Shown piece by piece: positions 218 to 21,449 of a stretch of DNA of 24,894 bases. The stretch covers positions 1 to 24,894 of IMG/VR virus record IMGVR_UViG_3300044613_000024. One strand, given 5' to 3'. Source of the DNA: a virus. The stretch's first letter is position 1. Every line of letters begins with the position of its first letter. The notes under the pieces are model-generated. The model did not search any database. It was given only the letters and a program-made list of their open reading frames with translations, and had not been told where the DNA came from. A program made the position numbers and the translations under genes.

Positions 218-1700
218 CCTGCACAAGTTCCCCCCGGCAGTCCAACAGAAGGTTGGACAACTTATTGCCGAGTTACGGAAAACCGCCGTGCACGACGTGG
301 CGAAGCAGGACTTCATGTCATTTGTAAAGTATGTGTGGCCTAACTTCATACACGGGGCGCACCACGAGAAGATGGCCCGGGCCTTTGAGGGAGTGGCTGA
401 AGGCAGGATAAAGCGCCTAATTATTAACATGCCACCCCGGCATACCAAGAGCGAGTTCGCCTCATACCTGCTTCCAGCGTGGTTTCTCGGTAAGTTTCCC
501 GGCAAAAAGGTGATCCAGACCTCCCACACAGCCGAGTTGGCTGTGGGTTTTGGTCGAAAAGTGCGAAATCTGGTAGACGCAGACCGCTACAAGGACCTGT
601 TTCCGGAGGTTTCGCTCCAGTCTGACTCCAAAGCGGCAGGTCGGTGGGCTACAAACTTCGCCGGTGAGTACTTTGCTATCGGTGTCGGGGGCGCGGTGAC
701 TGGTAAAGGTGCCGATCTGCTCATTATTGACGACCCTCACTCGGAGCAAGAAGCAGCCCTAGCCGAAATTAACCCCGAAATCTACGACAAAACCTACGAG
801 TGGTACACCTCTGGGCCAAGGCAGCGTCTCCAGCCGGGGGGAGCCATCGTGGTTGTGATGACCAGATGGAGTAAAAAGGACCTTACCGGGCAAGTTTTGA
901 AAGCAGCCGCCCAGCGAGACGGCGATGAGTGGGAAGTGATCGAGTTACCGGCTCTTTTACCGTCTGGAAGCCCGCTCTGGCCTCAGTTTTGGTCGGAAAA
1001 AGAACTTTTGGCCCTCAGAAACGAGTTGCCCCACGGCAAATGGATGGCCCAGTACCAGCAAGACCCCACCTCAGAGACCTCGGCTATTGTAAAGCGGGAC
1101 TGGTGGAGGATCTGGGAGGACGACGAGGCGCCAAACTGCGAATTTGTCCTTCAAGCGTGGGATACGGCCTTTGAAAAATCTAATCGGGCAGACTATTCGG
1201 CCTGTACGACGTGGGGCGTGTTCTACCACGAGGACCCAAAAACCGGAATGATGGAGTCAAACATCATCCTACTCAATGCCTTTCGGGATCGCTTGGAGTT
1301 TCCAGCCCTCAAACGGGAGGCCGTGGAGCAATACCAGAACTGGGAACCAGACTCCATCATTATTGAGAAGAAGGCTTCCGGGGCGCCCTTGATTTATGAG
1401 ATGCGGGCGATGGGTATCCCGGTCCAAGAGTTCACCCCCTCTCGGGGTAACGACAAGATCAGCCGACTAAACGCTGTGTCTGACTTATTTGCTTCAGGTC
1501 GGGTCTGGGCGCCCAACACCCACTGGGCGGAAGAGGTAATCGAGGAGGTTGCATCCTTTCCGGCAGGAGAGCATGATGACTACGTTGACTCTGTTTCCTT
1601 AGCGTTGATGCGCTTTAGGAAAGGGGGGTATATTCGCACGGCACTGGACGAACCCGAAGAGGTTCCGCAGTTTAGACGGCACTTTCAAGGATACTACTAA
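183..1700 (+). CDS. terL: Terminase large subunit (DNA packaging ATPase/nuclease)
   Basis: Motor protein that docks on the portal, hydrolyses ATP to pump DNA into the prohead and cuts the concatemer. The ~505-residue product has both expected domains. The ATPase has a Walker A-like loop PPRHTKSE at about residues 84-91 and a Walker B strand DLLIIDDPH at about 178-186. The RNase H-like nuclease has an acidic residue in AWDTAFEKSNRADYSA (about 325-340), a second strand SIIIEKKASG (about 391-400), and an HDDYVDS motif (about 464-470). Length is typical of the family. I chose the ATG at 183 (MDQNLL) over a TTG at 159; neither has a strong ribosome binding site, and translation may be coupled to the upstream gene, which it overlaps. 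Its TAA stop overlaps the portal ATG by one base. Confidence 0.96.
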   Translation: MDQNLLIKAQNNLHKFPPAVQQKVGQLIAELRKTAVHDVAKQDFMSFVKYVWPNFIHGAHHEKMARAFEGVAEGRIKRLIINMPPRHTKSEFASYLLPAWFLGKFPGKKVIQTSHTAELAVGFGRKVRNLVDADRYKDLFPEVSLQSDSKAAGRWATNFAGEYFAIGVGGAVTGKGADLLIIDDPHSEQEAALAEINPEIYDKTYEWYTSGPRQRLQPGGAIVVVMTRWSKKDLTGQVLKAAAQRDGDEWEVIELPALLPSGSPLWPQFWSEKELLALRNELPHGKWMAQYQQDPTSETSAIVKRDWWRIWEDDEAPNCEFVLQAWDTAFEKSNRADYSACTTWGVFYHEDPKTGMMESNIILLNAFRDRLEFPALKREAVEQYQNWEPDSIIIEKKASGAPLIYEMRAMGIPVQEFTPSRGNDKISRLNAVSDLFASGRVWAPNTHWAEEVIEEVASFPAGEHDDYVDSVSLALMRFRKGGYIRTALDEPEEVPQFRRHFQGYY

Positions 1701-4177
1701 TGGCAATTGACAAAGCACTTAATCAAGCCCCTATGGGTTTAGATCTCGAAGAGATGATGGATGAGCCTGCTCTTGAGATAGAGATTGAAGATCCGGAGGC
1801 TGTGCGCATCGGTATTGATGGCAAGCCCATACTAGAGATTGAAGAAGTCGAAGTTGAGGATGACTTTAATGCCAACCTCGCTGAAGAGATGGACGAAGGT
1901 GAGTTGACCGAACTATGCGGAGACTTGCTTGGCGAATTTGAAGAAGATGTATCTAGCCGCAAAGACTGGATGCAGACTTATGTTGATGGCTTAGAACTTC
2001 TTGGTCTAAAGATTGAGGACCGCACAGAGCCTTGGCCCGGAGCCTGCGGTGTGTACCACCCGCTGTTGAGTGAGGCGCTGGTTAAGTTTCAGGCAGAGAC
2101 AATCATGGAGACCTTCCCTGCTGCGGGGCCGGTCAAGACACAAATTATAGGCAAAGAAACCCCTGCGAAACGCGAGGCCGCCGTACGTGTCAAGGATGAC
2201 ATGAATTATCAATTAACGGAAGTCATGGTCGAGTATCGGCCTGAGCACGAGCGGATGCTGTGGGGCTTGGGGCTTTCGGGTAATGCGTTCAAGAAGGTGT
2301 ACTACGACCCAAGCATTGAGCGGCAAGTCTCTATCTTTGTACCTGCAGAAGATGTCGTGGTGCCTTACGGGGCGTCCAACCTCCAGACTTCGGAGCGTGT
2401 CACCCATGTGATGCGTAAGACAGAAAACGAACTGCGCAAGTTACAGGTAGCAGGCTTTTATCGTGACGTAGAACTTGGTGATCCGGTTGACTCATTCGAC
2501 GAGGTTGAGAAGAAAATTGCTGAGAAGATGGGCTTTCGTGCCTCATCTGACGACAGGTACAAGATCCTTGAGATGCACGTGGACATGGACCTGCCCGGCT
2601 ACGAAGACAAAGACGAGGATGGCGAGCCGACGGGTATTGCGCTGCCTTACGTTGTTACTATTGAAAAAGGAACTCAAACAGTCCTAGCGATCCGTCGCAA
2701 CTGGCACCCTGAAGATGATACTAAACAGAAGAGAAATCACTTCGTACATTACTCGTATATTCCGGGTTTTGGTTTTTACGCTTTTGGTCTTATCCACCTT
2801 ATTGGTGCTTTTGCTAAGTCTGGCACTTCTCTTATTCGTCAACTTGTTGATGCGGGAACCCTGTCAAACCTGCCCGGTGGATTCAAAACCAAAGGTCTTA
2901 GAGTTAAGGGTGATGACACCCCCATCTCCCCGGCAGAGTTTAGAGACGTAGACGTAGCCTCCGGCACAATCAAAGATAACATCATGACGCTCCCATACAA
3001 GGAGCCAAGTCAGGTGTTGTATACCCTCTTGGGTACGATTGTTGAAGAGGGTCGCCGGTTTGCAAGCGCAGCGGATATGAAGGTATCCGACATGAGTGCC
3101 CAGTCACCCGTAGGTACGACGCTGGCAATTCTAGAGCGCACATTGAAGGTGATGTCAGCCGTTCAGGCCCGCATCCACTACTCGATGAAGCAGGAGTTCA
3201 AACTCCTGAAGAACATCATCCGTGACTACACTCCGGACGATTATTCGTACGAGCCGGTTGAAGGACCCCCACGGGCCAAGCAGTCGGATTACGACGATGT
3301 GGACGTGATTCCGGTCTCAGACCCTAACGCTGCGACGATGAGTCAGAAGGTGGTGCAGTACCAAGCGGCTCTACAATTAGCCCAGACTGCGCCCCAGTTA
3401 TACGATCTGCCATACCTACATCGGCAGATGTTAGAAGTTCTCGGTATCAAGAATGTACAGAAACTTGTGCCGATGAAAGACGATATGAACCCACGTGATC
3501 CCATATCCGAGAACATGGATGTGATTAAAGGCAAGCCACTCAAGGCTTTCTCCTATCAGGATCACCAAGCCCATATCACAACCCACATGACCTTTATGCA
3601 AGATCCTATGACTGCTCAGATGATCGGACAAAACCCGATGGCGCAGCAGATGATGGGGGCACTGCAAGCACATATTGCAGAGCATTATGGGTACATGTAC
3701 CGCAACCAAATCGAACAACAGGTGGGTGCACCCATCCCGACGTTTGACGATGAGGATGAAAAAATCCCCGAGGATATGGAGGCTGCTCTCTCCCGTCTGG
3801 TGGCTCAGGCATCACAACAACTCCTGCTCCAGAACCAGACCGCCGCTGCACAACAGCAGGCACAGCAGCAAGCCCAAGATCCGATTCTTCAGTTACAGGC
3901 AAAAGAGGCTTCTATCAAAGAAGCAGACCTCCAACGCAAAGTGCTCAAGGACAAGACCGACGCACAACTCAAGGCTAACCAGCAAAACATTGAGCGCCAG
4001 CGGATTCAATCACAAGAGAAGATCGCTGAGGCTAATGCAATGGTGAAAGCCACCGCTGAAGATGAAGCATTAAAGGTTAAACAAGCCGATGCCATGATCA
4101 GAGCCACGGCAGAGGACGAAAGAATGAAACTGGAGAGGGACAAAGAACTTCTTCGGCTTCGTAGCAAGAGGGCTTAA
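1700..4177 (+). CDS. Portal protein
   Basis: The dodecameric ring at the capsid vertex through which DNA enters and leaves; the docking site of the terminase and adaptors. The 825-aa product starts with a very acidic N-terminus (residues ~15-65), then a conserved-looking core with DWMQTYVDGLELLG, RTEPWPGACGVYHPLLSEAL and a long run around RPEHERMLWGLGLSGNAFKKVYYD, all reminiscent of large podovirus-type portals. The last ~140 residues are Gln/Ala-rich and then a highly charged predicted coiled coil, comparable in place to the long C-terminal barrel/helix of P22-like portals. Within it, ANAMVKATAEDE and ADAMIRATAEDE form an 18-residue tandem duplication. Start overlaps the terL stop (TAATG). 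The family assignment is by recognition of sequence style and position; I could not run a profile search. Confidence 0.9.
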   Translation: MAIDKALNQAPMGLDLEEMMDEPALEIEIEDPEAVRIGIDGKPILEIEEVEVEDDFNANLAEEMDEGELTELCGDLLGEFEEDVSSRKDWMQTYVDGLELLGLKIEDRTEPWPGACGVYHPLLSEALVKFQAETIMETFPAAGPVKTQIIGKETPAKREAAVRVKDDMNYQLTEVMVEYRPEHERMLWGLGLSGNAFKKVYYDPSIERQVSIFVPAEDVVVPYGASNLQTSERVTHVMRKTENELRKLQVAGFYRDVELGDPVDSFDEVEKKIAEKMGFRASSDDRYKILEMHVDMDLPGYEDKDEDGEPTGIALPYVVTIEKGTQTVLAIRRNWHPEDDTKQKRNHFVHYSYIPGFGFYAFGLIHLIGAFAKSGTSLIRQLVDAGTLSNLPGGFKTKGLRVKGDDTPISPAEFRDVDVASGTIKDNIMTLPYKEPSQVLYTLLGTIVEEGRRFASAADMKVSDMSAQSPVGTTLAILERTLKVMSAVQARIHYSMKQEFKLLKNIIRDYTPDDYSYEPVEGPPRAKQSDYDDVDVIPVSDPNAATMSQKVVQYQAALQLAQTAPQLYDLPYLHRQMLEVLGIKNVQKLVPMKDDMNPRDPISENMDVIKGKPLKAFSYQDHQAHITTHMTFMQDPMTAQMIGQNPMAQQMMGALQAHIAEHYGYMYRNQIEQQVGAPIPTFDDEDEKIPEDMEAALSRLVAQASQQLLLQNQTAAAQQQAQQQAQDPILQLQAKEASIKEADLQRKVLKDKTDAQLKANQQNIERQRIQSQEKIAEANAMVKATAEDEALKVKQADAMIRATAEDERMKLERDKELLRLRSKRA

Positions 4178-4796: not shown

Positions 4797-5798
4797 ATGC
4801 CGTTACCCAAAGAAGCAGAAGGAAAGCCCGAATTTGAATTTGAAGTAGAGGGTGAAGATCAGGGTAAACCCGTAGAAAAAGAAGTAGAGGCTAGGGGTAA
4901 ACCCGAAGATGACAATATTGAAGTAATGGACGACACCCCGGAATATGACCGTGGGCGGGAGCCACTACCGAAAGAACTTGTAGACGAATTAGAGGCTGAC
5001 GAACTGGAGGAGTATTCCGACAGGGTTAAGACTCGTCTCAAGCAAATGCGCAAAGTCTGGCACGACGAGCGTAGGGCTAAAGAGGCCGCGCTGCGGGAGC
5101 AGCAAGAGGCTATTACCTTGGCCCAGAGAGTTTTTGAAGAAAACAAGAAACTCAAGTCCAAACTGACCGAAGACCAAAAGTCGTTCATTAATACCGCTAA
5201 AACGGCGGCTGAGTTGGAAATGGAGATGGCTAAACGTGCCTATAAAGAGGCATATGAGGCCGGAGATTCGGACCGGGTTGTAGATGCTCAGGAGAAACTT
5301 GCCGAGGTAAATTACAAACTTCAGCAAATAAAAAGTTATCGACCCCCTTTACAAGAACCCGAAACTGATGTAAATAGTGCTCCAGAACAACCAGTATCTC
5401 GTACTCCACGTCCTGACAATAAGGCAATGGGGTGGCAAGAACGGAACCAATGGTTTGGTCGGGATCGGTTGATGACCAGTTTGGCGTTGGGTCTTCACGA
5501 AGAACTGGTAGCAGAAAACGGTCAGGCGTATGCAACGACTGACGAGTATTACCAGCGTATTGACAAAACAATGCGCGAAAGATTTCCTGAGAGATTTCAG
5601 GAAGAAGTACAAACGACTAACGGGGGCGGCAAGCCCGTTACGCGCACCGAAAAACCCGCCACTGTGGTTGCTCCGGCATCCAGAAGCACGTCCTCCAAAA
5701 AGATTGTGCTGAAACAATCGCAAATAAATATTGCGAAGAAACTGGGTTTAACCCCCGAGCAGTATGCCCGGGAATATGCAAAAACTTTGGAGAACTAA
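4797..5798 (+). CDS. Probable capsid scaffolding protein
   Basis: A 333-aa protein with an extremely acidic, low-complexity N-terminus (residues 1-70), and a long charged coiled-coil region (about 70-180, e.g. RVKTRLKQMRKVWHDERRAKEAALREQQE). A Pro/Thr-rich linker follows, then a short basic/helical C-terminus with KIVLKQSQINIAKKLGL and LTPEQYAREYAKTLEN. Acidic coiled coil plus a short C-terminal helix-turn-helix that binds the coat protein is the known design of phage scaffolds, and a LTPEQYA-like ending is common in them. It lies just upstream of the coat genes, as expected. Scaffold chaperones coat assembly and leaves before or during packaging; no protease gene is seen nearby. Good AGGAG ribosome binding site at 4787-4791. 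Confidence 0.8.
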   Translation: MPLPKEAEGKPEFEFEVEGEDQGKPVEKEVEARGKPEDDNIEVMDDTPEYDRGREPLPKELVDELEADELEEYSDRVKTRLKQMRKVWHDERRAKEAALREQQEAITLAQRVFEENKKLKSKLTEDQKSFINTAKTAAELEMEMAKRAYKEAYEAGDSDRVVDAQEKLAEVNYKLQQIKSYRPPLQEPETDVNSAPEQPVSRTPRPDNKAMGWQERNQWFGRDRLMTSLALGLHEELVAENGQAYATTDEYYQRIDKTMRERFPERFQEEVQTTNGGGKPVTRTEKPATVVAPASRSTSSKKIVLKQSQINIAKKLGLTPEQYAREYAKTLEN

Positions 5799-5799
5799 C

Positions 5800-6249
5800 A
5801 TGGCTGAAAATAGACTTGCACGCGAACTTGAAAATCGATCCGCCGTAGAGCGTCCACAGGCTTGGGCACCCGCTTCCGCATTGCCGGAGCCGGATAAACA
5901 GCCGGGATACTCGTATCGCTGGATTCGTGTTGCCTCGATGGGACAGGCTGACCCCAAAAACACATCTTCCAAGATGCGCGAAGGGTGGGAACCCGTCCGG
6001 ATTGAAGAGCAACCTAAGTTCCAGATGTTAACTGACCCCAATAGTCGTTTTAAGGACAATATTGAGGTCGCCGGACTGTTACTTTGCAAAATCCCTGTTG
6101 AGTTTATGGAACAGCGTAAGCAGTACTACGCCAAAGCCACCAGAGACAACATGGAAGCCGTAGATAACACGTTCATGAGAGAGAACGACCCGAGGATGCC
6201 GCTCTTTAAGGAGCGTTCTTCTAAGACGTCGTTTGGAAAAGGTAAATAA
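5800..6249 (+). CDS. Head-region protein of unknown function
   Basis: A 149-aa protein starting MAENRLARELENRS; the ATG at 5800 lies one base after the scaffold stop with GGAG seven bases upstream, so I prefer it to an in-frame ATG at 5764 inside the scaffold gene. It is hydrophilic with a Pro-rich stretch (about 20-35), a compact region with YSYRWIRVASMG and REGWEPVRIEEQPKF, a single hydrophobic strand VAGLLLCKIPVEFM, and a basic tail (SSKTSFGKGK). No membrane segment or enzyme motif. Genes like it often lie between scaffold and coat genes in podovirus-like environmental phages, so a minor head or assembly role is likely but unproven. Confidence 0.75.
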   Translation: MAENRLARELENRSAVERPQAWAPASALPEPDKQPGYSYRWIRVASMGQADPKNTSSKMREGWEPVRIEEQPKFQMLTDPNSRFKDNIEVAGLLLCKIPVEFMEQRKQYYAKATRDNMEAVDNTFMRENDPRMPLFKERSSKTSFGKGK

Positions 6250-6885: not shown

Positions 6886-7794
6886 ATGGCTATTTCCCGC
6901 GCACAACTACTGAAGGAACTTCTCCCCGGACTGAACGCATTGTTTGGTATGGAGTATGCTCGCTACGGCGAAGAGCATAAAGAGATTTTCGAAACTGAAA
7001 CCTCTGAGCGTTCCTTCGAAGAAGAAACAAAACTGTCTGGCTTCTCAGCCGCTCCTGTCAAAAACGAAGGTTCTGCCATCGCTTATGACAACGGGCAAGA
7101 AGCATGGACGGCTCGCTATAACCACGAAACCATTGCTCTTGGCTTCTCGCTGACGGAAGAGGCAATTGAGGACAACCTCTATGACTCCCTGTCCAGCCGG
7201 TACACCAAGGCTCTGGCCCGTGCTATGGCTTACACCAAGCAGACTAAGGCTGCTGCAATCCTGAACAACGGCTTTGACTCCAACTATACTGGTGGCGATG
7301 GCGTAGAACTGTTCTCGACTGCACACCCCTTGGTTTCTGGTGGCGTCAACAGCAACGAACCCGCAACCCCTGCCGACCTGTCTGAGACCTCCCTTGAGGC
7401 CGCTGTTATTCAGATCGCTGGTTGGACGGACGAGCGTGGCCTGCTGATTGCTGCAAAGCCGCGTAAGTTGGTCGTTGCTCCTTCCAATATGTTCGTTGCG
7501 ACTCGTATTCTTGAGACGGAACTGCGTGTTGGTACGGCTGATAACGACATCAACGCTCTGAAGAGCAATGGTTCGATCCCAGAGGGTTACACTGTTAACC
7601 ACTTCTTGACCGACCCAGATGCTTGGTTCCTCTGCACAGACGTTCCTAACGGTCTGAAGCACTTCGTTCGTACCCCGATGGCAACATCGATGGACGGCGA
7701 CTTCGACACCGGTAACGTCCGTTACAAGGCCCGTGAGCGTTATTCGTTTGGTTGGTCCGATCCGCTTGGCGTTTTCGGTTCACCCGGCGCGTAA
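6886..7794 (+). CDS. Major capsid protein (probable HK97 fold)
   Basis: A 302-aa protein, the right size for a compact HK97-fold coat without a delta domain. Visible features are an N-terminal helix (AISRAQLLKELLPGLNALFGMEY), and an acidic extended segment with EIFETETSERSFEEETKLSGF. A spine-helix region follows (SLTEEAIEDNLYDSLSSRYTKALARAMAYTKQTKAAAILNNGF), then a loop ELFSTAHPLVSGG, and AKPRKLVVAPSNMFVATRILETELRVG, typical of coat proteins of several phage groups. It ends in RYKARERYSFGWSDPLGVFGSPGA. Codons are well balanced and the gene has an AAGGAG site followed immediately downstream by a strong terminator, as expected for the most highly expressed virion gene. Identity as coat is clear from order and sequence; sub-family not assigned. 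Confidence 0.93.
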   Translation: MAISRAQLLKELLPGLNALFGMEYARYGEEHKEIFETETSERSFEEETKLSGFSAAPVKNEGSAIAYDNGQEAWTARYNHETIALGFSLTEEAIEDNLYDSLSSRYTKALARAMAYTKQTKAAAILNNGFDSNYTGGDGVELFSTAHPLVSGGVNSNEPATPADLSETSLEAAVIQIAGWTDERGLLIAAKPRKLVVAPSNMFVATRILETELRVGTADNDINALKSNGSIPEGYTVNHFLTDPDAWFLCTDVPNGLKHFVRTPMATSMDGDFDTGNVRYKARERYSFGWSDPLGVFGSPGA

Positions 7795-8717: not shown

Positions 8718-9455
8718 ATGCAAAATCAAAAAGGTTACACGTTAGCAGGCCATAAGATCTTTTTTGGTATTCCTGCTTACGACCACAAGGTTTCACTCAA
8801 ACAAGCCATTTCTTTGATGCGGTTTGCCCAACAGGCGCCACAGCACGGGATTGACATTACGATTGGAAGTAGTTGTGGGTGCTCGGTGGTATCACGGGCA
8901 CGTAACCTCTTGGTTCAGGATTTTTTGGAGTCTGACGCCACGGAGTTGATGTTCATAGATTCAGACATTAACTTCCAGCCAGAAGACATTATTCGGTTGA
9001 TGGCTTGGGTAACGGAGCCAAATATCGACATTGCTGCCGGTATCCCGTGTGCCCGTAAGGTTGAGAAGACCTACATCGTCAAGTTGGATGAGGACGGTAA
9101 TGGGGTCACGATGAACGGTATGGGGCTGGTCCGTGCACAGCGGGTGGCTACTGCGTTCATGATGATTAAGCGCTCTGTGATTGAGAACTTGGTCAAGGAC
9201 AACCCTCAGTGGCAATACTGGGACGAGAGAACCGGACGCTCGCTGTCAGCGATATTTGACTTTGCCGTTAAGGACAACTCCTACGTTGGTGAGGACTATC
9301 TGTTCTGTGACCGTGCCCGCGATGCTGGCTATCAGGTCTGGGTAGACCCCACCATCAAGTTAGGCCACATGGGAACCATTGAGTACGAGGGTGATTACGG
9401 CAATGAAGCCTTCTACCCCCGGCTCGTCAAGGATGAAAAGGTGTCAAATGGCTAA
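8718..9455 (+). CDS. GT-A fold glycosyltransferase-like protein
   Basis: A 245-aa cytosolic protein with the features of a GT-A sugar transferase. These are an N-terminal strand KIFFGIPAYD, a helix with SRARNLLVQDFLES (about 59-72), and the strand plus metal-binding motif MFIDSDINF (DSD at 81-83). IAAGIPCARK follows, and a C-terminal block GEDYLFCDRARDAGYQVWVDP (about 191-211) with a late His (H217) in KLGHMGT. GT-A enzymes bind the nucleotide-sugar through the DxD and a divalent metal. Within a virion gene cluster it might glycosylate a capsid or fibre protein, or the host surface; no target can be read from the sequence. The start has only a weak ribosome binding site. The gene overlaps the next start by 8 bp (ATGGCTAA). 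Confidence 0.8.
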   Translation: MQNQKGYTLAGHKIFFGIPAYDHKVSLKQAISLMRFAQQAPQHGIDITIGSSCGCSVVSRARNLLVQDFLESDATELMFIDSDINFQPEDIIRLMAWVTEPNIDIAAGIPCARKVEKTYIVKLDEDGNGVTMNGMGLVRAQRVATAFMMIKRSVIENLVKDNPQWQYWDERTGRSLSAIFDFAVKDNSYVGEDYLFCDRARDAGYQVWVDPTIKLGHMGTIEYEGDYGNEAFYPRLVKDEKVSNG

Positions 9456-9768
9456 GTCTCCGGCGTGGCAACGTAAGGAAGGCAAGAACCCTGAAGGCGG
9501 TTTGAACGCCAAGGGCCGTGCTTCCTACAACGCTGCTAACCCCGGAAAACCCGGCCTAAAGCGCCCTCAACCTGAAGGTGGCTCCCGTAGAGATTCATTT
9601 TGTGCCCGTATGAAGGGTATGAAAAAGAAGTTAACTAGCGCTAAAACCGCTAATGACCCCAACTCCCGCATCAACAAAAGCCTTCGTGCATGGAATTGCA
9701 AAGAGGGTGGGTCTGTGCGTGGGGATGGTTGTGAGATCCGTGGTAAGACAAGAGGAAAGATTGTCTGA
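9448..9768 (+). CDS. Small basic protein of KEGKNPEGGLNAKGR type (DUF6321-like), with ADGC/GKTRG-like tail
   Basis: A 106-aa protein. The start MAKSPAWQRKEG is preferred because the ATG at 9448 matches the usual N-terminus of this family; an in-frame upstream start lies deep inside the glycosyltransferase gene. The core reads WQRKEGKNPEGGLNAKGRASYN, then a Pro/Gly/Lys linker, then SFCARMKGMKKKLTSAKTA, NDPNSRINKSLRAWNC. I recall this as a recurrent family in marine phages and some giant viruses, probably DUF6321; the number is unverified and no function is known to me. The end, GDGCEIRGKTRGKIV, is a variant of the tail found on the next genes. It is strongly basic, suggesting nucleic-acid binding or packing inside the capsid. 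Its TGA overlaps the next ATG (TGATG). Confidence 0.78.
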   Translation: MAKSPAWQRKEGKNPEGGLNAKGRASYNAANPGKPGLKRPQPEGGSRRDSFCARMKGMKKKLTSAKTANDPNSRINKSLRAWNCKEGGSVRGDGCEIRGKTRGKIV

Positions 9769-10013
9769 TGGAGATGATGCTTTGGAACGTCGTATTGACG
9801 GGGATTGTTATGGTTCTAGGCGCACTGCTTAAAGGCAAGATGGATGAATTAGGCCGTCTTGGAATTTTATTAAACAAAACACGTGAGGAGGTGGCTCGTG
9901 AGCACATCACTCGTAAAGAAGTTGACGACAAGTTTGACAAATTTCTGGTCCACGTTGATACGAGGTTTAACCGCCTTGAAGCAAAAATTGATGAACTTGG
10001 TCAAAAGGGGTAA
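9768..10013 (+). CDS. Small protein with N-terminal membrane segment and C-terminal coiled coil
   Basis: An 81-aa protein with one hydrophobic stretch (about residues 4-21, MLWNVVLTGIVMVLGALL) followed by a charged helix (about 22-80) with heptad-like spacing: DELGRLGILLNKTREEV, then KFDKFLVHVDTRFNRLEAKIDELG. Such a protein would lie in the inner membrane with its coiled coil on one side. A lysis accessory (holin-like or spanin-like), a membrane-tethered assembly factor or an injection component are all possible; there is no lipobox and no second transmembrane segment. The only member of this cluster that is not Lys/Gly-rich. The start overlaps the preceding stop (TGATG), and a GAGGAA-like site lies upstream. 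Confidence 0.72.
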   Translation: MEMMLWNVVLTGIVMVLGALLKGKMDELGRLGILLNKTREEVAREHITRKEVDDKFDKFLVHVDTRFNRLEAKIDELGQKG

Positions 10014-10016
10014 GTA

Positions 10017-10283
10017 ATGGCTGAAGAATCTACACGCACGAAGATGATTCGTGAAACCAAAGTTGACGACGATATGCCGTTGGTCAAGAAGGCTGTCCGT
10101 GCCGTAACTCTTGGAGCCAGCAAATTGGCTGACAAGATGGGCTTTACTCAGGAAGAAGAGTACAAGGACAAGTCTAAAGAGGAACTAGCCGTTAAGAAAC
10201 GCGCTGGTGGTACGGTATCTTCAGCCTCTAAGCGTGCTGATGGCTGCGCTGCTAAAGGTAAAACTCGCGGGAGGATGGTGTGA
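10017..10283 (+). CDS. Small basic protein with ADGCAAKGKTRG tail
   Basis: An 88-aa protein. The N-terminal half (about 1-60) is a charged helical region containing MPLVKKAVRAVTLGASKLADKMG and a Lys/Glu-rich stretch. The C-terminal ~25 residues are the shared tail: RAGGTVSSASKRADGCAAKG, then KTRGRMV. The next gene carries almost the same ending. There is no enzyme motif. The TGA stop overlaps the following ATG, so synthesis of the next tailed peptide is probably coupled. Ribosome binding site AAGGGGTAA lies just before the ATG at 10017. Role unknown; a virion-internal or nucleic-acid-bound peptide is an inference from charge and context. Confidence 0.75.
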   Translation: MAEESTRTKMIRETKVDDDMPLVKKAVRAVTLGASKLADKMGFTQEEEYKDKSKEELAVKKRAGGTVSSASKRADGCAAKGKTRGRMV

Positions 10284-10456
10284 TGGACAACCTAAAACCT
10301 GTTGACGCAGAACAAAACCCGGGCCTTTCTAAACTACCCACCGAAGTACGCAACAAAATGGGGTATATGAAAAAAGGTGGGCAAGTAAAGTCTTCTGCTT
10401 CTAAGCGTGCCGATGGTTGCGCCCAAAAAGGTAAGACCCGTGGAAAGATGGTCTGA
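10283..10456 (+). CDS. 57-aa basic peptide with ADGCAQKGKTRG tail
   Basis: A very short gene (57 codons) that joins its neighbours stop-to-start on both sides: TGATG at 10281-10285 and TGATG at 10454-10458. The product is a ~30-residue N-terminal piece (DNLKPVDAEQNPGLSKLP and EVRNKMGYM), and then MKKGGQVKSSASKRADGC followed by AQKGKTRGKMV, nearly the same as the end of the preceding protein. The perfect coupling to both neighbours and the shared tail argue that it is a real gene despite its size. Function unknown. Confidence 0.75.
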   Translation: MDNLKPVDAEQNPGLSKLPTEVRNKMGYMKKGGQVKSSASKRADGCAQKGKTRGKMV

Positions 10457-10878
10457 TGCCAACCGTATCGAAAAAGCAAGAAAAGTTTATGCAAGCGGTG
10501 GCTAATAACCCAAAGTTTGCAAAGAAGGTGGGCGTACCAACGTCCGTAGGCAAAGAGTTCACTAAAAAGGAAGGTGGAGTCATGAAAGAGTCAAAAGCAA
10601 TGATGAAAAAGGAAGTGTCCTTCATGAAGAAAAAAGGCGCTCCCAAGTCCATGATTAAGCATGAGATGAAAGAAGCAGGTATGGAAGCCGGTGGCGTTAC
10701 TAAAAAGATGCCAACCGCAAAGCAAATGGGTTCGCTCGGTATGAGGGCTGGTGGTCTGGCTGCTGGGCATAAGTCTGCTGACGGAATTGCTTCTAAGGGT
10801 AAGACCAAGGGCAAGGAAGTGGCTATGAAAAAAGGTGGCGCAGTCAAGAAGATGCGTTACGGCGGAAAGACCTGCTAA
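10456..10878 (+). CDS. Lys/Met-rich basic protein with internal SADGIASKGKTKG motif
   Basis: A 140-aa protein with about 32 lysines and 14 methionines. It starts with a compact module SKKQEKFMQAVANNPKFAKK, then VGVPTSVGKEF (about 5-35), followed by Lys/Met-rich helices with repeated MKK and EGG/AGG steps. The segment MRAGGLAAGHKSADGIASKG, KTKGKEV (about 101-127) is a diverged copy of the neighbours' tail (Ile in place of Cys), now followed by a further end MKKGGAVKKMRYGGKTC. It therefore looks like a longer, more elaborate relative of the tailed peptides. The composition suggests DNA or RNA binding. Starts on the previous stop (TGATG); the next gene starts directly after its TAA. Confidence 0.75.
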   Translation: MPTVSKKQEKFMQAVANNPKFAKKVGVPTSVGKEFTKKEGGVMKESKAMMKKEVSFMKKKGAPKSMIKHEMKEAGMEAGGVTKKMPTAKQMGSLGMRAGGLAAGHKSADGIASKGKTKGKEVAMKKGGAVKKMRYGGKTC

Positions 10879-11160
10879 ATGCGCTTAAGTCGGGGGATGG
10901 GGATTATCAACCCATCCAAGATGCCTAAAGCCAAGACGATCACCCGCAAGGATGATCCGAATGAGGTCACTATGTACGCCGAAGGTGGTGTATCTAAAGT
11001 GAACGAGGCTGGCAACTACACCAAACCCGGTATGCGCAAGCGGCTCTTTGAGAGTATTAAGGCTGGCGGTAAAGGTGGTGCTCCGGGTCAATGGAGTGCT
11101 CGTAAAGCGCAGATGTTAGCGGCGCAGTACAAAAAGGCGGGCGGTGGGTACCGGGATTAG
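10879..11160 (+). CDS. Small basic protein of KPGMRKRL...PGQWSARKAQMLA type
   Basis: A 93-aa protein. The conserved-looking part is in the C-terminal half: NEAGNYTKPGMRKRLFESIK, AGGKGGAPGQWSARKAQMLA, then AQYKKAGGGYRD. I recall this block as a widespread family in environmental phages and large eukaryotic viruses (possibly DUF5872, not verified), without known function. The N-terminal half has DDPNEVTMYAEGG. Net positive, Gly-rich, no Cys pair, no membrane segment. The ATG follows the previous TAA with no gap, and a purine-rich stretch in the preceding gene can serve as ribosome binding site. Confidence 0.78.
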   Translation: MRLSRGMGIINPSKMPKAKTITRKDDPNEVTMYAEGGVSKVNEAGNYTKPGMRKRLFESIKAGGKGGAPGQWSARKAQMLAAQYKKAGGGYRD

Positions 11161-11320
11161 GTTTCCGGTATACGACGCCAATGTAGACGGCAACGTATTT
11201 GACTGGCTAATAAGTACCGCTGAGGATTTTAGAAAGATTAGGCAACGAGAAAGATATGTCGAACTTGAAAAAGCCGCAGCAAAGCCTGAAAGCGTGGACC
11301 GCTCAAAAGTGGAGAACTAA
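11144..11320 (+). CDS. Possible small gene (58 codons, GTG start) overlapping both neighbours
   Basis: Between 11161 and 11255 no other gene is present. One frame is open from 11120 to the TAA at 11318-11320, with a GTG at 11144 preceded by AAAAAGG. The product (about 58 aa) reads GTGIRFPVYDANVDGNVFDW, then LISTAEDFRKIRQRERYVELEKAA and a hydrophilic end. The mix of a beta-like front and amphipathic helix looks protein-like. It would overlap the preceding gene by 17 bp and the following gene by 65 bp, which is more than usual here, so the call is tentative. I know no family. Confidence 0.45.
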   Translation: MGTGIRFPVYDANVDGNVFDWLISTAEDFRKIRQRERYVELEKAAAKPESVDRSKVEN

Positions 11321-11519
11321 GAGTGGCAAACCATCTACGCAAGGACCGAAGGCTACAGGGGAAAGATACCTCCCAAGTAGCGCCATCAAAGCGCTCTCCC
11401 CGCAAGAGTACGCCGCGACCACCCGAGCCAAGCGAGCAGGAAAAGCCGCAGGAAAGCAATTCGTTGCCCAGCCAAAGAACGTGGCTGCAAAAACTGCTAG
11501 GCACAGGAAAGTGAAATGA
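11256..11519 (+). CDS. Small basic protein of KPQQSLKAWTxQKWRTKSGKPS type
   Basis: An 87-aa, strongly basic protein. It begins MSNLKKPQQSLKAWTAQKW, followed by RTKSGKPSTQGPKATGERYL, then PSSAIKALSPQEYAATTRAK and a Lys/Arg/Ala tail (RAGKAAGKQFVAQPKNVAAK). The pattern is a distinct, well-conserved family I recognise from environmental phages and giant viruses; no function is known to me. This family usually starts right at KPQQSL, so the ATG at 11256 is likely despite overlapping the candidate gene upstream. It shares the positive charge and Gly/Lys/Ala composition of the other small genes here. The stop overlaps the next start (ATGA). Confidence 0.8.
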   Translation: MSNLKKPQQSLKAWTAQKWRTKSGKPSTQGPKATGERYLPSSAIKALSPQEYAATTRAKRAGKAAGKQFVAQPKNVAAKTARHRKVK

Positions 11520-12430
11520 CGACAACCGGAACCACTAACTTTAATCTACAACTTAATGACATTGTAGAAGAAGCCTTTGAACGGGCTGGTGCCGAGTTGC
11601 GTACTGGATATGAGTTACGGACTGCACGCCGCAGTCTGAACCTGCTGACAATTGAGTGGGCTAACCGGGGTGTGAACCTCTGGACTATTGAGCAAGGCTC
11701 AATCCCGCTAAATCAGGCGCAGATCACTTACGCCCTGCCTATCGACACCATCGATCTAATGGACATGGTAGTGCGTACCGACTCTGGGCTTATTAGCCAG
11801 TCAGACATCAATATCAACCGGATATCTAGCAGCACCTACGCCACGATCCCTAATAAGAATGCCCAAGGACGCCCAATTCAGGTATGGATTGACCGCCAAA
11901 GCGGGGCTTCAAACACCACTAACATCACGCTGGCGAGCACTATTACTTCGTCTTCTACCACCGTTACACTAAGTTCTGTGGTTGGACTTAACTACGTGGG
12001 CTTTATCACGATTGGCTCTGAGACCATTGGGTACAACGAGATTTCTGGCAATACCCTACAAAACTGTGTCCGTGGTGTGAACAATACGACGGCTGCTGGG
12101 CATAACAGTGGGGCGGCGGTGTCTGTGGCTAACTTACCAAATATTAACGTCTGGCCTAGCCCGGACCAGTCTAACTTCTATACTTTTGTGTATTGGAGAT
12201 TGCGTCGCCTGCAGGATGCGGGTAATGGTGTGCAGACTGAGGACATCCCGTTTCGCATGTTGCCGTGCTTGGTGGCTGGGTTGGCGTACTACATCGCCAT
12301 GAAGATCCCAGAAGGTATGCCACGTTTGGATATGCTAAAAGCGGCTTATGAGGAACAATGGACGCTAGGATCAAGTGAAGACCGTGAAAAGGCTTCCTTG
12401 CGGCTGGCTCCACGGCAGTATTTTTATTAA
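11516..12430 (+). CDS. Head-tail adaptor / tail tubular A-like protein with inserted beta domain
   Basis: A 304-aa protein. The N-terminal region has NLQLNDIVEEAFERAGAE, RTARRSLNLLTIEWANRGVN and LWTIEQGSIPL. This helix-plus-aromatic layout resembles the gp4/gp11-type podovirus adaptors that bind the portal and start the tail. Residues ~132-206 look like a separate beta domain, TLASTITSSSTTVTLSSVVG then FITIGSETIGYNEISGNTLQ and CVRGVNNTTAAGHNSGAAV. This type of module occurs on its own in other phage structural proteins. The adaptor fold appears to resume at LPNINVWPSPDQSNFYTFVYWRLRRLQDAG. The C-terminal part (PFRMLPCLVAGLAYYIAMKIP) is a helical region. Overlaps the preceding stop by 4 bp. Confidence 0.8.
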   Translation: MTTTGTTNFNLQLNDIVEEAFERAGAELRTGYELRTARRSLNLLTIEWANRGVNLWTIEQGSIPLNQAQITYALPIDTIDLMDMVVRTDSGLISQSDININRISSSTYATIPNKNAQGRPIQVWIDRQSGASNTTNITLASTITSSSTTVTLSSVVGLNYVGFITIGSETIGYNEISGNTLQNCVRGVNNTTAAGHNSGAAVSVANLPNINVWPSPDQSNFYTFVYWRLRRLQDAGNGVQTEDIPFRMLPCLVAGLAYYIAMKIPEGMPRLDMLKAAYEEQWTLGSSEDREKASLRLAPRQYFY

Positions 12431-12440
12431 CGGGTGAACT

Positions 12441-12875
12441 ATGGCTGGTCCAAAGTTTGCTTCTGGTAAATGGGCAATAGCGGAGTGCGATAGATGCGGA
12501 TTTCGTTACAAACTGAAGGAATTGAAAAAATTGGTCATCAAGACCAAGAACATCAATTTGCTGGTTTGCCATACGTGCTGGGAGCCGGATCAACCGCAGT
12601 TGCAGTTGGGTATGTACCCCGTGTACGACCCGCAGGCTTTGCAGAATCCGAGAAACGACAAGTCGTATTTACAGGCAGGTTTAACAGGAACGCAAGTTGA
12701 GTACATTAACCCGCCAGATCCAGATGCTTCAGATGCATTTGGTGAGCCGTCTGGAGGTAGTAGGATAATCCAGTGGGGGTGGAACCCAGTGGGTGGAGCA
12801 AGAGATAATGGATTAACGCCCAATAATTTAGAGGCACAGGGCAATGTAGGGACCGTAACCGTAACAACTACTTAG
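12441..12875 (+). CDS. Zinc-ribbon structural-region protein
   Basis: A 144-aa protein with one zinc-ribbon-like set CX2C (C16, C19) and CX2C (C43, C46) in KWAIAECDRCGFRYKLKELKK and LLVCHTCWEPDQPQL. After it come a Pro/Asn-rich segment (VYDPQALQNPRNDKSY) and a Gly/Ser-rich tail. Proteins with an N-terminal zinc ribbon of this pattern and a QALRNPR-like segment are common beside adaptor genes in environmental phages. A structural role in the neck or head is likely, with zinc stabilising the fold; DNA binding is possible too. The start has a weak ribosome binding site (GGGTGA) 10 bp after the adaptor stop. Confidence 0.78.
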   Translation: MAGPKFASGKWAIAECDRCGFRYKLKELKKLVIKTKNINLLVCHTCWEPDQPQLQLGMYPVYDPQALQNPRNDKSYLQAGLTGTQVEYINPPDPDASDAFGEPSGGSRIIQWGWNPVGGARDNGLTPNNLEAQGNVGTVTVTTT

Positions 12876-15388: not shown

Positions 15389-15399
15389 TGGACTGAAAT

Positions 15400-16626
15400 G
15401 TGGCGACATTCAGTGGTTGGGGTGACGGTCCTTGGGGATACGTTCCTTGGGGATCAGACCGCACCGACGTCGAAGTTCCGCTTGATGGGTGGGGCTACGG
15501 TGGGTGGGGTGAGACCCCGTGGGGCCAAGGCTCTGCTGGCGTCCAAGGCTCTGGCGCTGTTGGATCAGTCACAGTTCAGACCCAGAAAAATGAATCCGTC
15601 AATGTTACCGGCGTCTCTGCAACCGGATCAATTGGTCAAGTACTTATCACTGGCGATGCAAACGTCGCAGTCACAGGTGTTCAAGCCGCAGGTCAGATTG
15701 GTCAAGTCTCTGTTGGAGAAGGTGTCGGAGTCCTCGTCACAGGGGTACAAGCAAACGGGTTCATCGGTCAAGCCGCAGTATCAGGTACAGCCAACGTCTT
15801 CCCAACAGGGGTTCAAGGCACCGGTTCCGCAGGTCAAGTTACCGTCGCTGCCAATGCCAATGTCTTCGCAGTTGGTGTTCAAGGACAGGGGTTCATCGGG
15901 CAAGCCCAAGCAACCGGCGGCGCTTCTGTCTCCGTTACAGGGGTCCAAGCCACAGGAGCCATCGGTACAGTCGCAGTCCGTGGTAGTGCAAATACCACCG
16001 TCACGGGGGTCTCAGGTAGCGGTGCTATTGGCTCCGTTACCGCCAGCGCGGGGGCTAGTGTCACCCTTACCGGGGTCAGTGCAACCGGCTTTATCGGGCA
16101 AGCACAAGCCACAGGCGGAGCAAACGCCTCAGTCACAGGGGTTAGCGGGTCTGGTCAAGTTGGAAGCGTTGCAACAACTGGCGATGCCTCAGTCACACTT
16201 ACAGGGGTCCAAGCCACTGGCTTTGTCGGACAAGTCGCTGTTACAGGTGACGGGGTTGTTAGTGTTACTGGCGTTCAAGCGGTTGGCTTTATTGGTCAAG
16301 TCGTCATTCAGAAAAATGAGTCAGTCACACTCACTGGCGTTTCTGCAACAGGATTTATTGGGCAAGCCACAGCAGTCCCGGGTGTCAGCGTATTTGTCAC
16401 GGGGGTTACAGCCCTCACAGCCATTGGTATCGTCTCTGCTGGGCAGGGTGTGGATGTCACCGTTACAGGCGTTCAAGCCACCGGTGCAGTTGGGCAAGTA
16501 TTCAATTGGGTTTCAGTTGACGACAATCAGACCGCTAACTGGCAAAATATCAATGATTCACAGACCGATGCGTGGGTGGCAGTTAATGATGCCCAAACCG
16601 CAAATTGGACTGAAATAGCAGCGTAA
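15400..16626 (+). CDS. Tail fibre protein with fifteen 22-residue repeats
   Basis: A 408-aa probable fibre protein. Residues 1-44 are Trp/Gly-rich (GWGDGPWGYVPWG...GWGYGGWGETPWG). Residues 45 to about 368 are about fifteen repeats of 22 residues with consensus V-x-V-T-G-V-Q/S-A-T-G-x-I-G-Q-V-x-V-x-G-x-A-x, and the last ~35 residues hold three 11-residue repeats with N-D-x-Q-T-x-x-W. The strict 22-residue period with alternating Val and regular Gly suggests a beta-solenoid or trimeric beta-fibre rod. I chose the GTG at 15400, since the ATG at 15398 belongs to another frame. There is no strong ribosome binding site, so expression may be low or coupled to the previous gene. A long open shadow frame exists in this region (see findings). 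Confidence 0.85.
   Translation: MATFSGWGDGPWGYVPWGSDRTDVEVPLDGWGYGGWGETPWGQGSAGVQGSGAVGSVTVQTQKNESVNVTGVSATGSIGQVLITGDANVAVTGVQAAGQIGQVSVGEGVGVLVTGVQANGFIGQAAVSGTANVFPTGVQGTGSAGQVTVAANANVFAVGVQGQGFIGQAQATGGASVSVTGVQATGAIGTVAVRGSANTTVTGVSGSGAIGSVTASAGASVTLTGVSATGFIGQAQATGGANASVTGVSGSGQVGSVATTGDASVTLTGVQATGFVGQVAVTGDGVVSVTGVQAVGFIGQVVIQKNESVTLTGVSATGFIGQATAVPGVSVFVTGVTALTAIGIVSAGQGVDVTVTGVQATGAVGQVFNWVSVDDNQTANWQNINDSQTDAWVAVNDAQTANWTEIAA
15532..16503 (+). repeat. 66-bp coding repeats (about fifteen units)
   Basis: The DNA encoding the 22-residue repeats has a 66-bp period, each unit built round an ACxGGxGTxCAAGCxAC-like core and a GGxCAAG block. Units are diverged, not identical; several pairs share long matches (for example the units around 16070-16110 and 16330-16365). 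Unit number could change by recombination. Confidence 0.85.
16513..16611 (+). repeat. Three 33-bp coding repeats at fibre C-terminus
   Basis: Three 11-residue units, SVDDNQTANWQ, NINDSQTDAWV and AVNDAQTANWT, occupy residues 372-404. They share N/D-D-x-Q-T-x-x-W with the Trp in the same place. This is distinct from the 22-residue array before it. Confidence 0.8.
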
Positions 16627-18254: not shown

Positions 18255-19661
18255 ATGCCAATCCACGGCTATCCCGGTAATGTAATCACCGCTAATCCAA
18301 CAGCGCCCACATCGAGCGTTGCTTCTGGCGTTTGGACTACTGAGCAACAACTGATTGCTAAGGCGGCGGGTAATTGGCCTATGGCGCTGACTCAGATTGG
18401 TAGTAGTCTGCGGTTTAACTCTGCAGATAGTGCGTACATGACCAGAACACCTAGCGTTGCGGGTAATCGTAGAACATGGACTTGGAGTGGGTGGTTTAAG
18501 CGATGCAATCCGGCAACAACAAACACTTTGTTTTCTGCATATGTTGACGCTAACAACTTTTTTGGAATTAGATTGCGTGAAGAAGGTGACAATGGTCGTT
18601 TAGAAATCCTAAATTATTCTTCCGCTTACGATATGCGGATTGAAACTACGCAAGTATTTCGTGACGTTAGTGCTTGGTATCACCTTGTTGTTGCTATTGA
18701 CACAACCCAAGCAACATCTACAGACAGGGTTAAACTGTATTTGAATGGTTCACAGATTACGGCTCTTTCAACAACTACATACCCTAGTCAAAACTTTGAT
18801 ACTGATGTAAACAATACAAACGCACACTATATTGGCAGTTTAAGTACAAGTCAATATAACAACGGCTACCAAACCGAAATCTACTTCATCGACGGTCAAG
18901 CCCTAACACCCTCTTCCTTTGGCTTTAACAGTTCAGACACGGGCGTTTGGTCTCCAAAACAGTACATCGGTTCGTATGGCACAAACGGCTTTTATCTGCC
19001 AATGAGCATATCCGAAACCAATCCGACGTGGAACTATGACCCGATGAATACGTTTGGGACATACAACGCAAGCGGCAGCATGGTTCAGAGTTCCACACAA
19101 ATTTACCTAAGTGGCGCTACTTATGATGGTGGGTACAAGGCGGCAGCAGTAAGTCCCGGATCTTTCACAGCACTACAAAACAACTGGAGTTTGGATTTCC
19201 AACTAAACAGAGACGGAGTTAATTCGTCCCCATTCCCAAACTACACTATTGCTATTGGTCGGCAATCCTCGGCAACTACTTATTTCAGTACTTCCGGGGC
19301 GCAGGATATTGTGCATTTAGTTGTAGGTAACAATTACAACTATAACTGGTATGTTTATAACGGAAATGGAACGCAACTTTATACGTTTGGAGGGTCTGGT
19401 TCAGGCACTACGTATGGTCAGTATGCTGTGGCTGGGTCGTCTGGACGGGTAACCTTTAACTTCAGCACATTTACATTTACGTTCTTTGCACGGGTAGACG
19501 GCTCTTTCAGTGGCATGACACAAATAGGCACTTACACTTTATCAGCCGGAGAAAAGGCTGCGATGCTCAGTGCTTACCAAAACACTAATTTTTATATAAC
19601 GTCAGTCTATCGATCCAATAATGATGGTTGGCGAAATATTGACTGGTACACGACGGTATAA
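18255..19661 (+). CDS. LamG-domain adhesin, N-terminal half of a split fibre pair
   Basis: A 468-aa receptor-binding candidate. Residues ~50-230 are a concanavalin A/LamG-like lectin domain (SLRFNSADSAYMTRTPS, RRTWTWSGWFKR, WYHLVVAIDTTQATSTDRVK, LYLNGSQITAL, GYQTEIYFIDGQALTPSSFG). The first 248 residues align block by block with the N-terminus of the gene at 21450, ending at the shared YGTNGFYL at residues 241-248 in both. The remaining ~220 residues (LPMSISETNPTWNYDPMN, ... NIDWYTTV) have no counterpart there and form a separate Gly/Ser/Tyr-rich beta region. The ORF then stops, and the rest of the shared architecture continues in the next gene. Both pieces are intact, so this is either a real two-gene arrangement or a recent split. 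Confidence 0.8.
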   Translation: MPIHGYPGNVITANPTAPTSSVASGVWTTEQQLIAKAAGNWPMALTQIGSSLRFNSADSAYMTRTPSVAGNRRTWTWSGWFKRCNPATTNTLFSAYVDANNFFGIRLREEGDNGRLEILNYSSAYDMRIETTQVFRDVSAWYHLVVAIDTTQATSTDRVKLYLNGSQITALSTTTYPSQNFDTDVNNTNAHYIGSLSTSQYNNGYQTEIYFIDGQALTPSSFGFNSSDTGVWSPKQYIGSYGTNGFYLPMSISETNPTWNYDPMNTFGTYNASGSMVQSSTQIYLSGATYDGGYKAAAVSPGSFTALQNNWSLDFQLNRDGVNSSPFPNYTIAIGRQSSATTYFSTSGAQDIVHLVVGNNYNYNWYVYNGNGTQLYTFGGSGSGTTYGQYAVAGSSGRVTFNFSTFTFTFFARVDGSFSGMTQIGTYTLSAGEKAAMLSAYQNTNFYITSVYRSNNDGWRNIDWYTTV

Positions 19662-19687
19662 CCAGAAAGATCTAGGAGACTTAGTAA

Positions 19688-21442
19688 ATGCCCATTAATC
19701 CCGGATTAGATGCTTCTGGCAACGGAAACAACTGGACGCCTATTAACCTTCAGTGGGTTGTAGCGGGGGTTAATTACGACATTATGGTGGATTCACCTAC
19801 GCCATACGGTACAGACACAGGTGTTGGTGGTACGGTGCGTGGTAATTACGCTACGTTGAATCCATTAGCATCTGTATCAAGTCCACCAACATTTGCAAAT
19901 GGAAACTTAGAAGCGACTGGCCCCGCTTCAGGTGTTGGAGTATGCCAAACGACGGCTGCGGCAACATCTGGAAAGTTCTACGCAGAGGTAACTGTTACTA
20001 GAACGTCCGACCGATTAGACCTTGGAATTATGGGTTCTGGGGTATCTATGACCACAACAAACTATCTTGGAACCGATACCAATACAATTGCTTATTTAAC
20101 TTCTACGGGTGTTATCAGAAAAGACAATACCAACAATCAAACTGGATTGGCTACTTGCACAACTGGTGATGTGGTTGGAATGACTGTTGATATGGACACC
20201 GGGTCAATTCAATTTTATAAAAATAATGCTACGGTTGGAACAGCGGTTTCGTTTACGCCAAGCAGTTACGTTGCGTTTCTATTTGCTCAAACAACTAGTA
20301 ACAACACAAGCAAAGGCACATGGAACTTTGGTCAACGTGCCTTTGCCTACACAGCCCCCTCTGGCTTTAAGGCATTGTGTACAACTAATCTGCCTACGCC
20401 GACCATCGGTGCTACTAGCACTACACAGGCGGGGAAGTATATGAATGTGGTTACTTATACAGGCAATGGAACTGGTCAAACCATTAGCACCGTAGGTTTT
20501 CAACCGGATTTGGTGTGGGTTAAAAACAGAAGTAATGCGGGTAATAACCACAATTTGCAGGATAGCGTTCGTGGGTTTTCGGTTGCGCTTTCTACCAGTT
20601 TAACAAACTCAGATTCAGCGGCATCAAACGCAGTTAGTGGTGTTACATCTACAGGATTCACTCTTGGAAATAATAGTAATGGATATTCTGTAAATGAAAA
20701 TACCTACACCTACGTTGCATGGAACTGGAACGCTGGCGGCTCTAACGCTACCAACACCTCTGGCACTATAACCAGTACAGTCAGGGCGAACACGACTAGC
20801 GGGTTCTCGATTGTGCAATGGACTGGTTCCGGTGCTAACGGTACTGTTGGGCATGGACTAGGAGTTGCCCCGCAGTTTATGTTTATGAAGAATAAAACCA
20901 ATGGCGGTACTGGCTGGCCTACATATCATGCCTTTATGGATGCGTCTGCGCCACAGAATTACTTTATTAGCATGGCATCAACAGATGCCAAAACATCAGA
21001 TTCTGCTGCTTGGAATAATACTGCACCTACTAGTTCTGTATTTAGTGTTGGTAATAGTTCGTACAGCAACGGTGGAACAATGATTGCGTATGTGTTTGCG
21101 CCAGTAGCGGGGTATAGCGCCTTTGGAAGTTACACGGGCAATGGTTCGAGTGACGGGCCGTTTGTGTACCTTGGCTTCCGTCCTGAGTTTGTAATGATTA
21201 AAAGCGCAACTACCGCCGGAACGTCTTGGGAGATGTTTGACAATGCAAGAGAAACGTCTAACTTAATGGATTTGGAACTGCTTGCAAACTCAAGCAATGC
21301 TGAAGGTACATATACGTTTGGTGATTTTGTATCTAACGGATTTAAGTTACGGTCAACCAACAATGGCGTAAATCAATCTTCGGCAACTCTGATATATATG
21401 GCATTTGCTGAAAACCCATTTAAGTACGCTTTAGCACGATAG
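19688..21442 (+). CDS. SPRY-like plus repeat-domain adhesin, C-terminal half of a split fibre pair
   Basis: A 584-aa protein that begins abruptly with MPINPGLDASGNGNNWTPIN, equivalent to GYDYSGNANNWTTNNF at residue ~259 of the 21450 gene. It continues through TVRGNYATLNPL, then an SPRY-like region (about 70-220; GDVVGMTVDMDTGSIQFYKN, TWNFGQRAFAYTAPSGFKAL). Three repeat domains follow (about 249-580). They start with YMNVVTYTGNGTGQTISTVG, FQPDLVWVKN; then IVQWTGSGANGTVGHGLGVA; then SYTGNGSSDGPFVYLGFRPE, ending FAENPFKYALAR. I recall such a domain as DUF7483, unverified. It has its own AGGAG site and ATG at 19688, so it can be translated alone. Likely acts with the preceding protein. Confidence 0.8.
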   Translation: MPINPGLDASGNGNNWTPINLQWVVAGVNYDIMVDSPTPYGTDTGVGGTVRGNYATLNPLASVSSPPTFANGNLEATGPASGVGVCQTTAAATSGKFYAEVTVTRTSDRLDLGIMGSGVSMTTTNYLGTDTNTIAYLTSTGVIRKDNTNNQTGLATCTTGDVVGMTVDMDTGSIQFYKNNATVGTAVSFTPSSYVAFLFAQTTSNNTSKGTWNFGQRAFAYTAPSGFKALCTTNLPTPTIGATSTTQAGKYMNVVTYTGNGTGQTISTVGFQPDLVWVKNRSNAGNNHNLQDSVRGFSVALSTSLTNSDSAASNAVSGVTSTGFTLGNNSNGYSVNENTYTYVAWNWNAGGSNATNTSGTITSTVRANTTSGFSIVQWTGSGANGTVGHGLGVAPQFMFMKNKTNGGTGWPTYHAFMDASAPQNYFISMASTDAKTSDSAAWNNTAPTSSVFSVGNSSYSNGGTMIAYVFAPVAGYSAFGSYTGNGSSDGPFVYLGFRPEFVMIKSATTAGTSWEMFDNARETSNLMDLELLANSSNAEGTYTFGDFVSNGFKLRSTNNGVNQSSATLIYMAFAENPFKYALAR

Positions 21443-21449
21443 GATCGAC

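What the first reader, a model, noticed from the sequence alone, without database searches (positions are those of the whole stretch)
9448..11519. Cluster of small basic phage genes with a shared C-terminal peptide module and stop-start coupling
Directly seen: three consecutive tagged genes (ends at 9768, 10283 and 10456) finish with variants of ...GG-x-V-x(4-8)-ADGC-A-x-KGKTRG-[KR]-[IM]-V. The first is GDGCEIRGKTRGKIV, the second and third ADGCAAKG/ADGCAQKG then KTRGRMV/KTRGKMV. Each of them ends with GT(C/G)TGATG, so the peptide end and the overlapping start of the next gene recur together. A fourth gene (10456) carries an internal, Cys-less version (SADGIASKGKTKG) and then a further KKGG..KKMRYGGKTC end. 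Two other small basic families (WSARKAQMLA and KPQQSLKAWT) follow. Inference: the shared end is a portable tag (capsid targeting, DNA condensation, or processing/cross-linking through the Cys), copied onto different N-terminal bodies. I know no described function. This is the best candidate for an undescribed system in the window.
Basis: partly seen in the sequence, partly recalled or inferred. Interest (0 to 1): 0.8.

Follow-up and report, generated by a model that had tools for sequence, protein, structure and literature searches.

The report
Shared C-terminal tag on phage proteins
One lineage of uncultured, mostly freshwater phages ends hundreds of otherwise unrelated small proteins with the same roughly 20-residue peptide, always in one rapidly changing stretch beside the capsid gene, which suggests an undescribed tag that delivers swappable proteins to the virus particle.

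Summary
The tail SASKRADG[CI]Ax[KR]GKT[KR]G[KR][MIF][VC] ends three window genes, and an extended form lies in a fourth. Pattern scans of IMG/VR gave 878 unique tail ORFs in 358 loci. All 950 tails with an anchor gene lie on the head-gene strand, and 602 of 639 lie in one interval of about 2.5 kb between a DUF6321 gene and gene 11516, just after the major capsid protein (MCP) gene. In 21 of 23 tail-bearing contigs or assemblies tested, an MCP 77-95% identical to the window's is present. The 660 strict tail proteins have about 235-288 unrelated, unannotated bodies, without saturation. Phages whose MCPs are 85-90% identical share about 1% of bodies. Synonymous codons are almost free, so selection acts on the peptide. 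DUF6321 occurs with and without the tail. Best explanation, untested: a C-terminal address that loads swappable proteins into the head, working like T4's capsid-targeting sequence with its diverse internal proteins, but not a member of that system. Indirect support: two other modules of the cluster occur in virion proteins of unrelated phages (CBB_322, detected by mass spectrometry; S-SCSM1 gp029, annotated virion protein). No paper found describes the tail.

The parts
9448..9768 (+). DUF6321 protein (106 aa) with the tail appended after ...LRAWNC
   Evidence: PF19846 9.3e-19 over residues 12-82; most homologues end at LRAWNC/LRAWKC
9706..9765 (+). Tail 1: GGSVRGDGCEIRGKTRGKIV
9768..10013 (+). 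Untagged 81-aa gene between the first and second tagged genes
   Evidence: weak phrog_7885 match 1.1e-5
10017..10283 (+). Tagged 88-aa protein, body in no Pfam family and with only a weak PHROG match
   Evidence: family of 6 members in the loci
10215..10280 (+). Tail 2: VSSASKRADGCAAKGKTRGRMV
10283..10456 (+). Tagged 57-aa protein; body NPGLSKLPTEVRNKMGYMKKGG is a module found without this tail in roseophages CRP-1 and CRP-13 and in locus L123
10388..10453 (+). Tail 3: KSSASKRADGCAQKGKTRGKMV
   Evidence: AlphaFold2 model of the whole protein with 76 aligned rows stays at pLDDT about 59
10456..10878 (+). 140-aa protein: N-terminal SKKQ module (10456-10572), linker modules, extended tail core DGIASKGKTKG (10780-10812), C-terminal Cys
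   Evidence: phrog_16759 2.6e-17, phrog_22033 and phrog_25121 'virion structural protein' about 1e-6
10879..11160 (+). WSARKAQMLA protein, untagged neighbour
   Evidence: phrog_17747 9.4e-32; also in HMO-2011, pelagiphages and roseophages
11256..11519 (+). KPQQSLKAWT protein, untagged neighbour
   Evidence: phrog_14910 5.7e-35
6886..7794 (+). Major capsid protein (Mu gpT-like) of the lineage that carries the tail
   Evidence: PF25209 1.9e-12 and PF10124 1.8e-8; phrog_371
11516..12430 (+). Gene g304, downstream border of the variable interval
   Evidence: homologue in 312 of 358 loci, downstream of the tails

Best explanation
The tail is a C-terminal address peptide for late proteins of one podovirus-like lineage. 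During head assembly it is bound by a head component of that lineage (inner face of the capsid protein, scaffold, portal or the conserved 161-aa head-operon protein), so that any small, mostly disordered protein ending in it is carried into or onto the particle. The bodies are exchangeable payloads that turn over faster than any flanking gene. Shown: portability, fixed location, protein-level selection, hypervariable bodies, link to one MCP clade. Inferred: virion loading, the binding partner, and any function of the payloads on entry.
For: Same strand as head genes in 950 of 950 tails and inside one interval in 602 of 639 (distances). A window-type MCP (77-95% identity) in 21 of 23 tail-bearing contigs or assemblies tested. 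Among 11 isolate genomes (9 with a homologous MCP) only Pag-Yong1, the one with a 75% identical MCP, has the tail, once, on a 308-aa protein encoded soon after its MCP and minor capsid genes. Bodies: 235-288 clusters, unsaturated, about 1% shared at MCP identity 85-90%. DUF6321 with and without tail. Synonymous codons near background entropy. Other modules of the same cluster occur in virion proteins of unrelated phages: the SKKQ module starts CBB_322, found in purified CBB virions with 30 peptides (PMC5259590 Table 4); DUF6321 ends S-SCSM1 gp029, annotated virion protein, from a phage whose virion proteome was measured (PMC9602691). [quoted passage not shown]
Against: No tail protein has been seen in a virion. 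Virion evidence concerns other modules of the cluster, not the tail. Payload bodies are mostly low-complexity and match no known inhibitor or enzyme, unlike folded T4 IPI. No prohead protease was recognised among the window proteins scanned. The MCP link could be plain common descent.
Confidence: 0.45

Rival explanations
1. Nucleic-acid tail: the basic peptide and bodies bind or condense packaged DNA, and enter the head only by charge.
For: Net charge about +5 in the last 22 residues, bodies slightly basic; late head operon.
Against: An invariant Asp and an exact Gly/Thr pattern with hydrophobic last residues are conserved, not just charge; the A-end class lacks the last basic GK[MI]V yet keeps the core.
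Confidence: 0.2
2. Assembly or neck glue: the tail docks small proteins on the portal-adaptor region rather than in the head, as the locus lies next to adaptor genes.
For: Interval lies between MCP and the SU10-type adaptor genes; portal Cys116 and head-operon Cys108 are conserved in tail-bearing phages.
Against: Extreme turnover of bodies is unlike a neck part; the Cys conservation may be descent.
Confidence: 0.15
3. Tag for a host target in late infection (membrane, protease or ribosome) with no place in the particle.
For: Some bodies begin with a hydrophobic segment such as LAALAGLAYM; C-terminal hydrophobic residues can be recognised by host factors (general knowledge).
Against: Only 8 of 212 cluster representatives exceed the hydrophobicity threshold; the tail is confined to one MCP clade.
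Confidence: 0.12
4. A DNA-level recombination site: genes are swapped through conserved tail DNA and the peptide is a by-product.
For: Cassette-like turnover with the tail at gene junctions.
Against: Synonymous sites in tail codons are near background entropy and tails in one genome share only 48% of codons at identical residues.
Confidence: 0.04

Closest known systems
T4 capsid-targeting sequence (CTS) with internal proteins IPI-III and Alt
   Same: Short conserved terminal peptide on diverse small basic proteins, late head genes, payload diversity (PMC3012670; PMC7411985)
   Different: CTS is N-terminal and cut off by the prohead protease; here the peptide is C-terminal, no protease was recognised in the window, and no sequence relation was shown
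SPN3US prohead protease C-terminal propeptide
   Same: A C-terminal peptide proposed to target a protein into the prohead (PMC7411985)
   Different: 64 residues on one protein, cleaved; not portable
P22 scaffolding protein C-terminal coat-binding domain (general knowledge)
   Same: Basic C-terminal segment that loads fused cargo into procapsids
   Different: Folded helical domain of the scaffold itself; not tested here
DUF6321 (PF19846)
   Same: One of the bodies that carries the tail
   Different: DUF6321 is found in 500 phage records, mostly cyanophages; it is a host of the tail in a minority of this lineage, not its family

Membership tests
T4-type capsid-targeting sequence system | Short conserved terminal peptide on unrelated proteins | tested here: met
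   235-288 body clusters share it
T4-type capsid-targeting sequence system | Peptide at the N-terminus | tested here: not met
   C-terminal in 374 of 490 unique ORFs with exactly 3 residues after KT[KR]G; an extended C-terminal form in most others
T4-type capsid-targeting sequence system | Removed by a phage prohead protease | tested here: inconclusive
   No separate protease family among the window proteins scanned; the window is a fragment and cleavage cannot be seen
T4-type capsid-targeting sequence system | Tagged proteins packaged in the head | not testable with these tools
   Needs virion proteomics
DUF6321 (PF19846) | Match to the Pfam profile above its cut-off | tested here: met
   Gene 9448-9768 only, 68.3 bits against cut-off 28.5
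Any known Pfam family for the tagged bodies | Significant domain match | tested here: not met
   86 bodies: two single marginal matches, E 0.007 and 0.0097

The most novel reading that the evidence does not exclude
A C-terminal sorting code of tailed phages: several sub-tags (GK[MI]V end, RGKTRA end, extended GGKxC end) address an open-ended set of rapidly exchanged proteins to particular sites of one capsid type, possibly fixed by the single Cys that sits at either of two positions.
Probability: 0.2. Interest if true: 0.9.

Novelty: new variant of a known kind. Interest (0 to 1): 0.76.

Why it matters
If the tail loads proteins into heads, it defines a large class of unannotated phage cargo that can be recognised by sequence alone, and offers a short C-terminal tag for loading proteins into capsids. 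It would also explain why phages with nearly identical capsids differ almost completely in this interval. Even without a mechanism, a fixed peptide on hundreds of unrelated bodies tied to one capsid clade is directly testable in cultured Planktothrix/Synechococcus phages.

Tried and rejected
Recombination-site reading: rejected by free synonymous codons. Beta-hairpin pairing positions -12 and -1 to explain the single-Cys pattern: AlphaFold2 gave pLDDT about 59 with no hairpin, and the DUF6321 model puts the tail below 50. Conserved capsid Cys as a partner: none in MCP, cement protein or scaffold; only portal 116 and the 161-aa protein 108, confounded by descent. Tail in isolates by tblastn: almost nothing, but the low-complexity filter may hide it; a pattern search then found it in Pag-Yong1 only. 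A divergent sister tail (RGCGxVMxxRRKKTK) seen in isolates gave no hits in two IMG/VR scans with narrow patterns. Literature: no paper holds KGKTRG or DUF6321, nor Pag-Yong1. One alignment made with a dummy row was not used. First count of body clusters was replaced.

Full report
Observation. Three window genes end with the described tail at 9768, 10283 and 10456, each followed by the TGATG overlap; gene 10456-10878 has an extended form. They are not consecutive: gene 9768-10013 is untagged. Gene 9448-9768 is DUF6321, 10456-10878 starts with phrog_16759, 10879-11160 is phrog_17747 and 11256-11519 is phrog_14910; the two bodies at 10017 and 10283 have no Pfam match.

Extent. Because loci were fetched by pattern, core residues specified in the pattern are partly conserved by selection of the sample; flanking residues (S-20, A-19, S-18, R-16, A-15) and the fixed location were not specified. 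Shuffled ORFs gave no match.

Location and lineage. All 950 tails in loci with an anchor gene are on the strand of the head genes, and 602 of 639 lie between the DUF6321 gene and g304, with a mean of 2.8 tails per interval of about 2.5 kb. Median distances are 3.1 kb after the MCP and 3.0 kb before the adaptor. Of 23 tail-bearing contigs or assemblies tested, 21 hold an MCP 77-95% identical to that of the window; one exception is a contig whose tails lie near its first base and the other an odd 8.6-kb contig binned as Patulibacter. Isolates with MCPs 64.5% identical or less have no tail; Pag-Yong1, with the same MCP as MinM2 at 74.7%, has one.

Bodies. Of 660 strict tail proteins, bodies fall into 235 single-linkage or 288 greedy clusters, 193 of them singletons, and the count still rises with more loci. 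BLAST with low-complexity filtering will split some distant relatives, so these are upper estimates. Pairs of loci with MCP identity 85-90% share 1.3% of bodies; at 95% or more they share 21%. None of 86 bodies has a convincing Pfam match. The DUF6321 body ends at LRAWNC or LRAWKC in most genomes and continues into the tail in a minority (21 by a strict pattern, several more with Gln for Lys), which shows addition or loss of the tail on one protein. The 10283 body occurs without the tail in CRP-1, CRP-13 and L123, and the SKKQ module stands alone in phiKZ, Eowyn and BUCT555.

Level of selection. At invariant residues, codon entropy is close to the background of the same genes, and tails within a genome share 48% of codons at identical residues against 42% between genomes. 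The peptide, not the DNA, is conserved.

Cysteine pattern. One representative per body cluster: Cys at -12 only 89, at the last residue only 35, both 3, neither 66 (Fisher 1e-8). Bodies are nearly Cys-free (0.07% of residues). The meaning is open; the two positions belong to partly distinct subtypes (C-[TVI]-K and I-Q-R), so shared descent contributes.

Mechanism. The fixed place in the head operon, one capsid clade, protein-level selection and open-ended bodies fit a head-loading address. The SKKQ module begins CBB_322, found in purified virions of the unrelated jumbo phage CBB, and DUF6321 ends S-SCSM1 gp029, annotated virion protein; this supports a virion role for the cluster, not for the tail itself. 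T4 gives the precedent: diverse internal proteins that share only a capsid-targeting sequence. N-terminal position, a defining feature of that system, is not met here, so this is 'works like', not 'is'.

Confidence. Portability, location and hypervariability: high. Virion targeting: 0.45. No experiment on any tail protein was found.

Noticed in passing
window 12441-12875: The 144-aa gene keeps four Cys (16, 19, 43, 46) in 159-162 of 162 homologues, a likely zinc ribbon next to the adaptor genes.
   Followed up: partly
window 15398-16626: Two long ORFs (406 and 408 aa) overlap in different frames over a VTGVQATGxIGQ-type repeat.
   Followed up: no
window 18255-23927: Three large ORFs share GVW/GTNGFYL-type stretches and look like paralogous virion proteins.
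   Followed up: no
window 1700-4177 and 5764-6249: Portal Cys116 (22 of 23) and Cys108 of the 161-aa protein (52 of 53) are conserved in tail-bearing phages and Pag-Yong1 but mostly Ala or Ser in tail-less relatives.
   Followed up: partly
L259, L246, L260: Sister phages end small proteins with other basic tails: RGCGKVMSNRRKKTKIA, GQGRVIRSKKTRIC, MARMKPTKMY; possibly related tags.
   Followed up: partly
window 8718-9455: Gene between the head genes and the cluster resembles a glycosyltransferase (phrog_1574 4.8e-37, weak Pfam matches).
   Followed up: no
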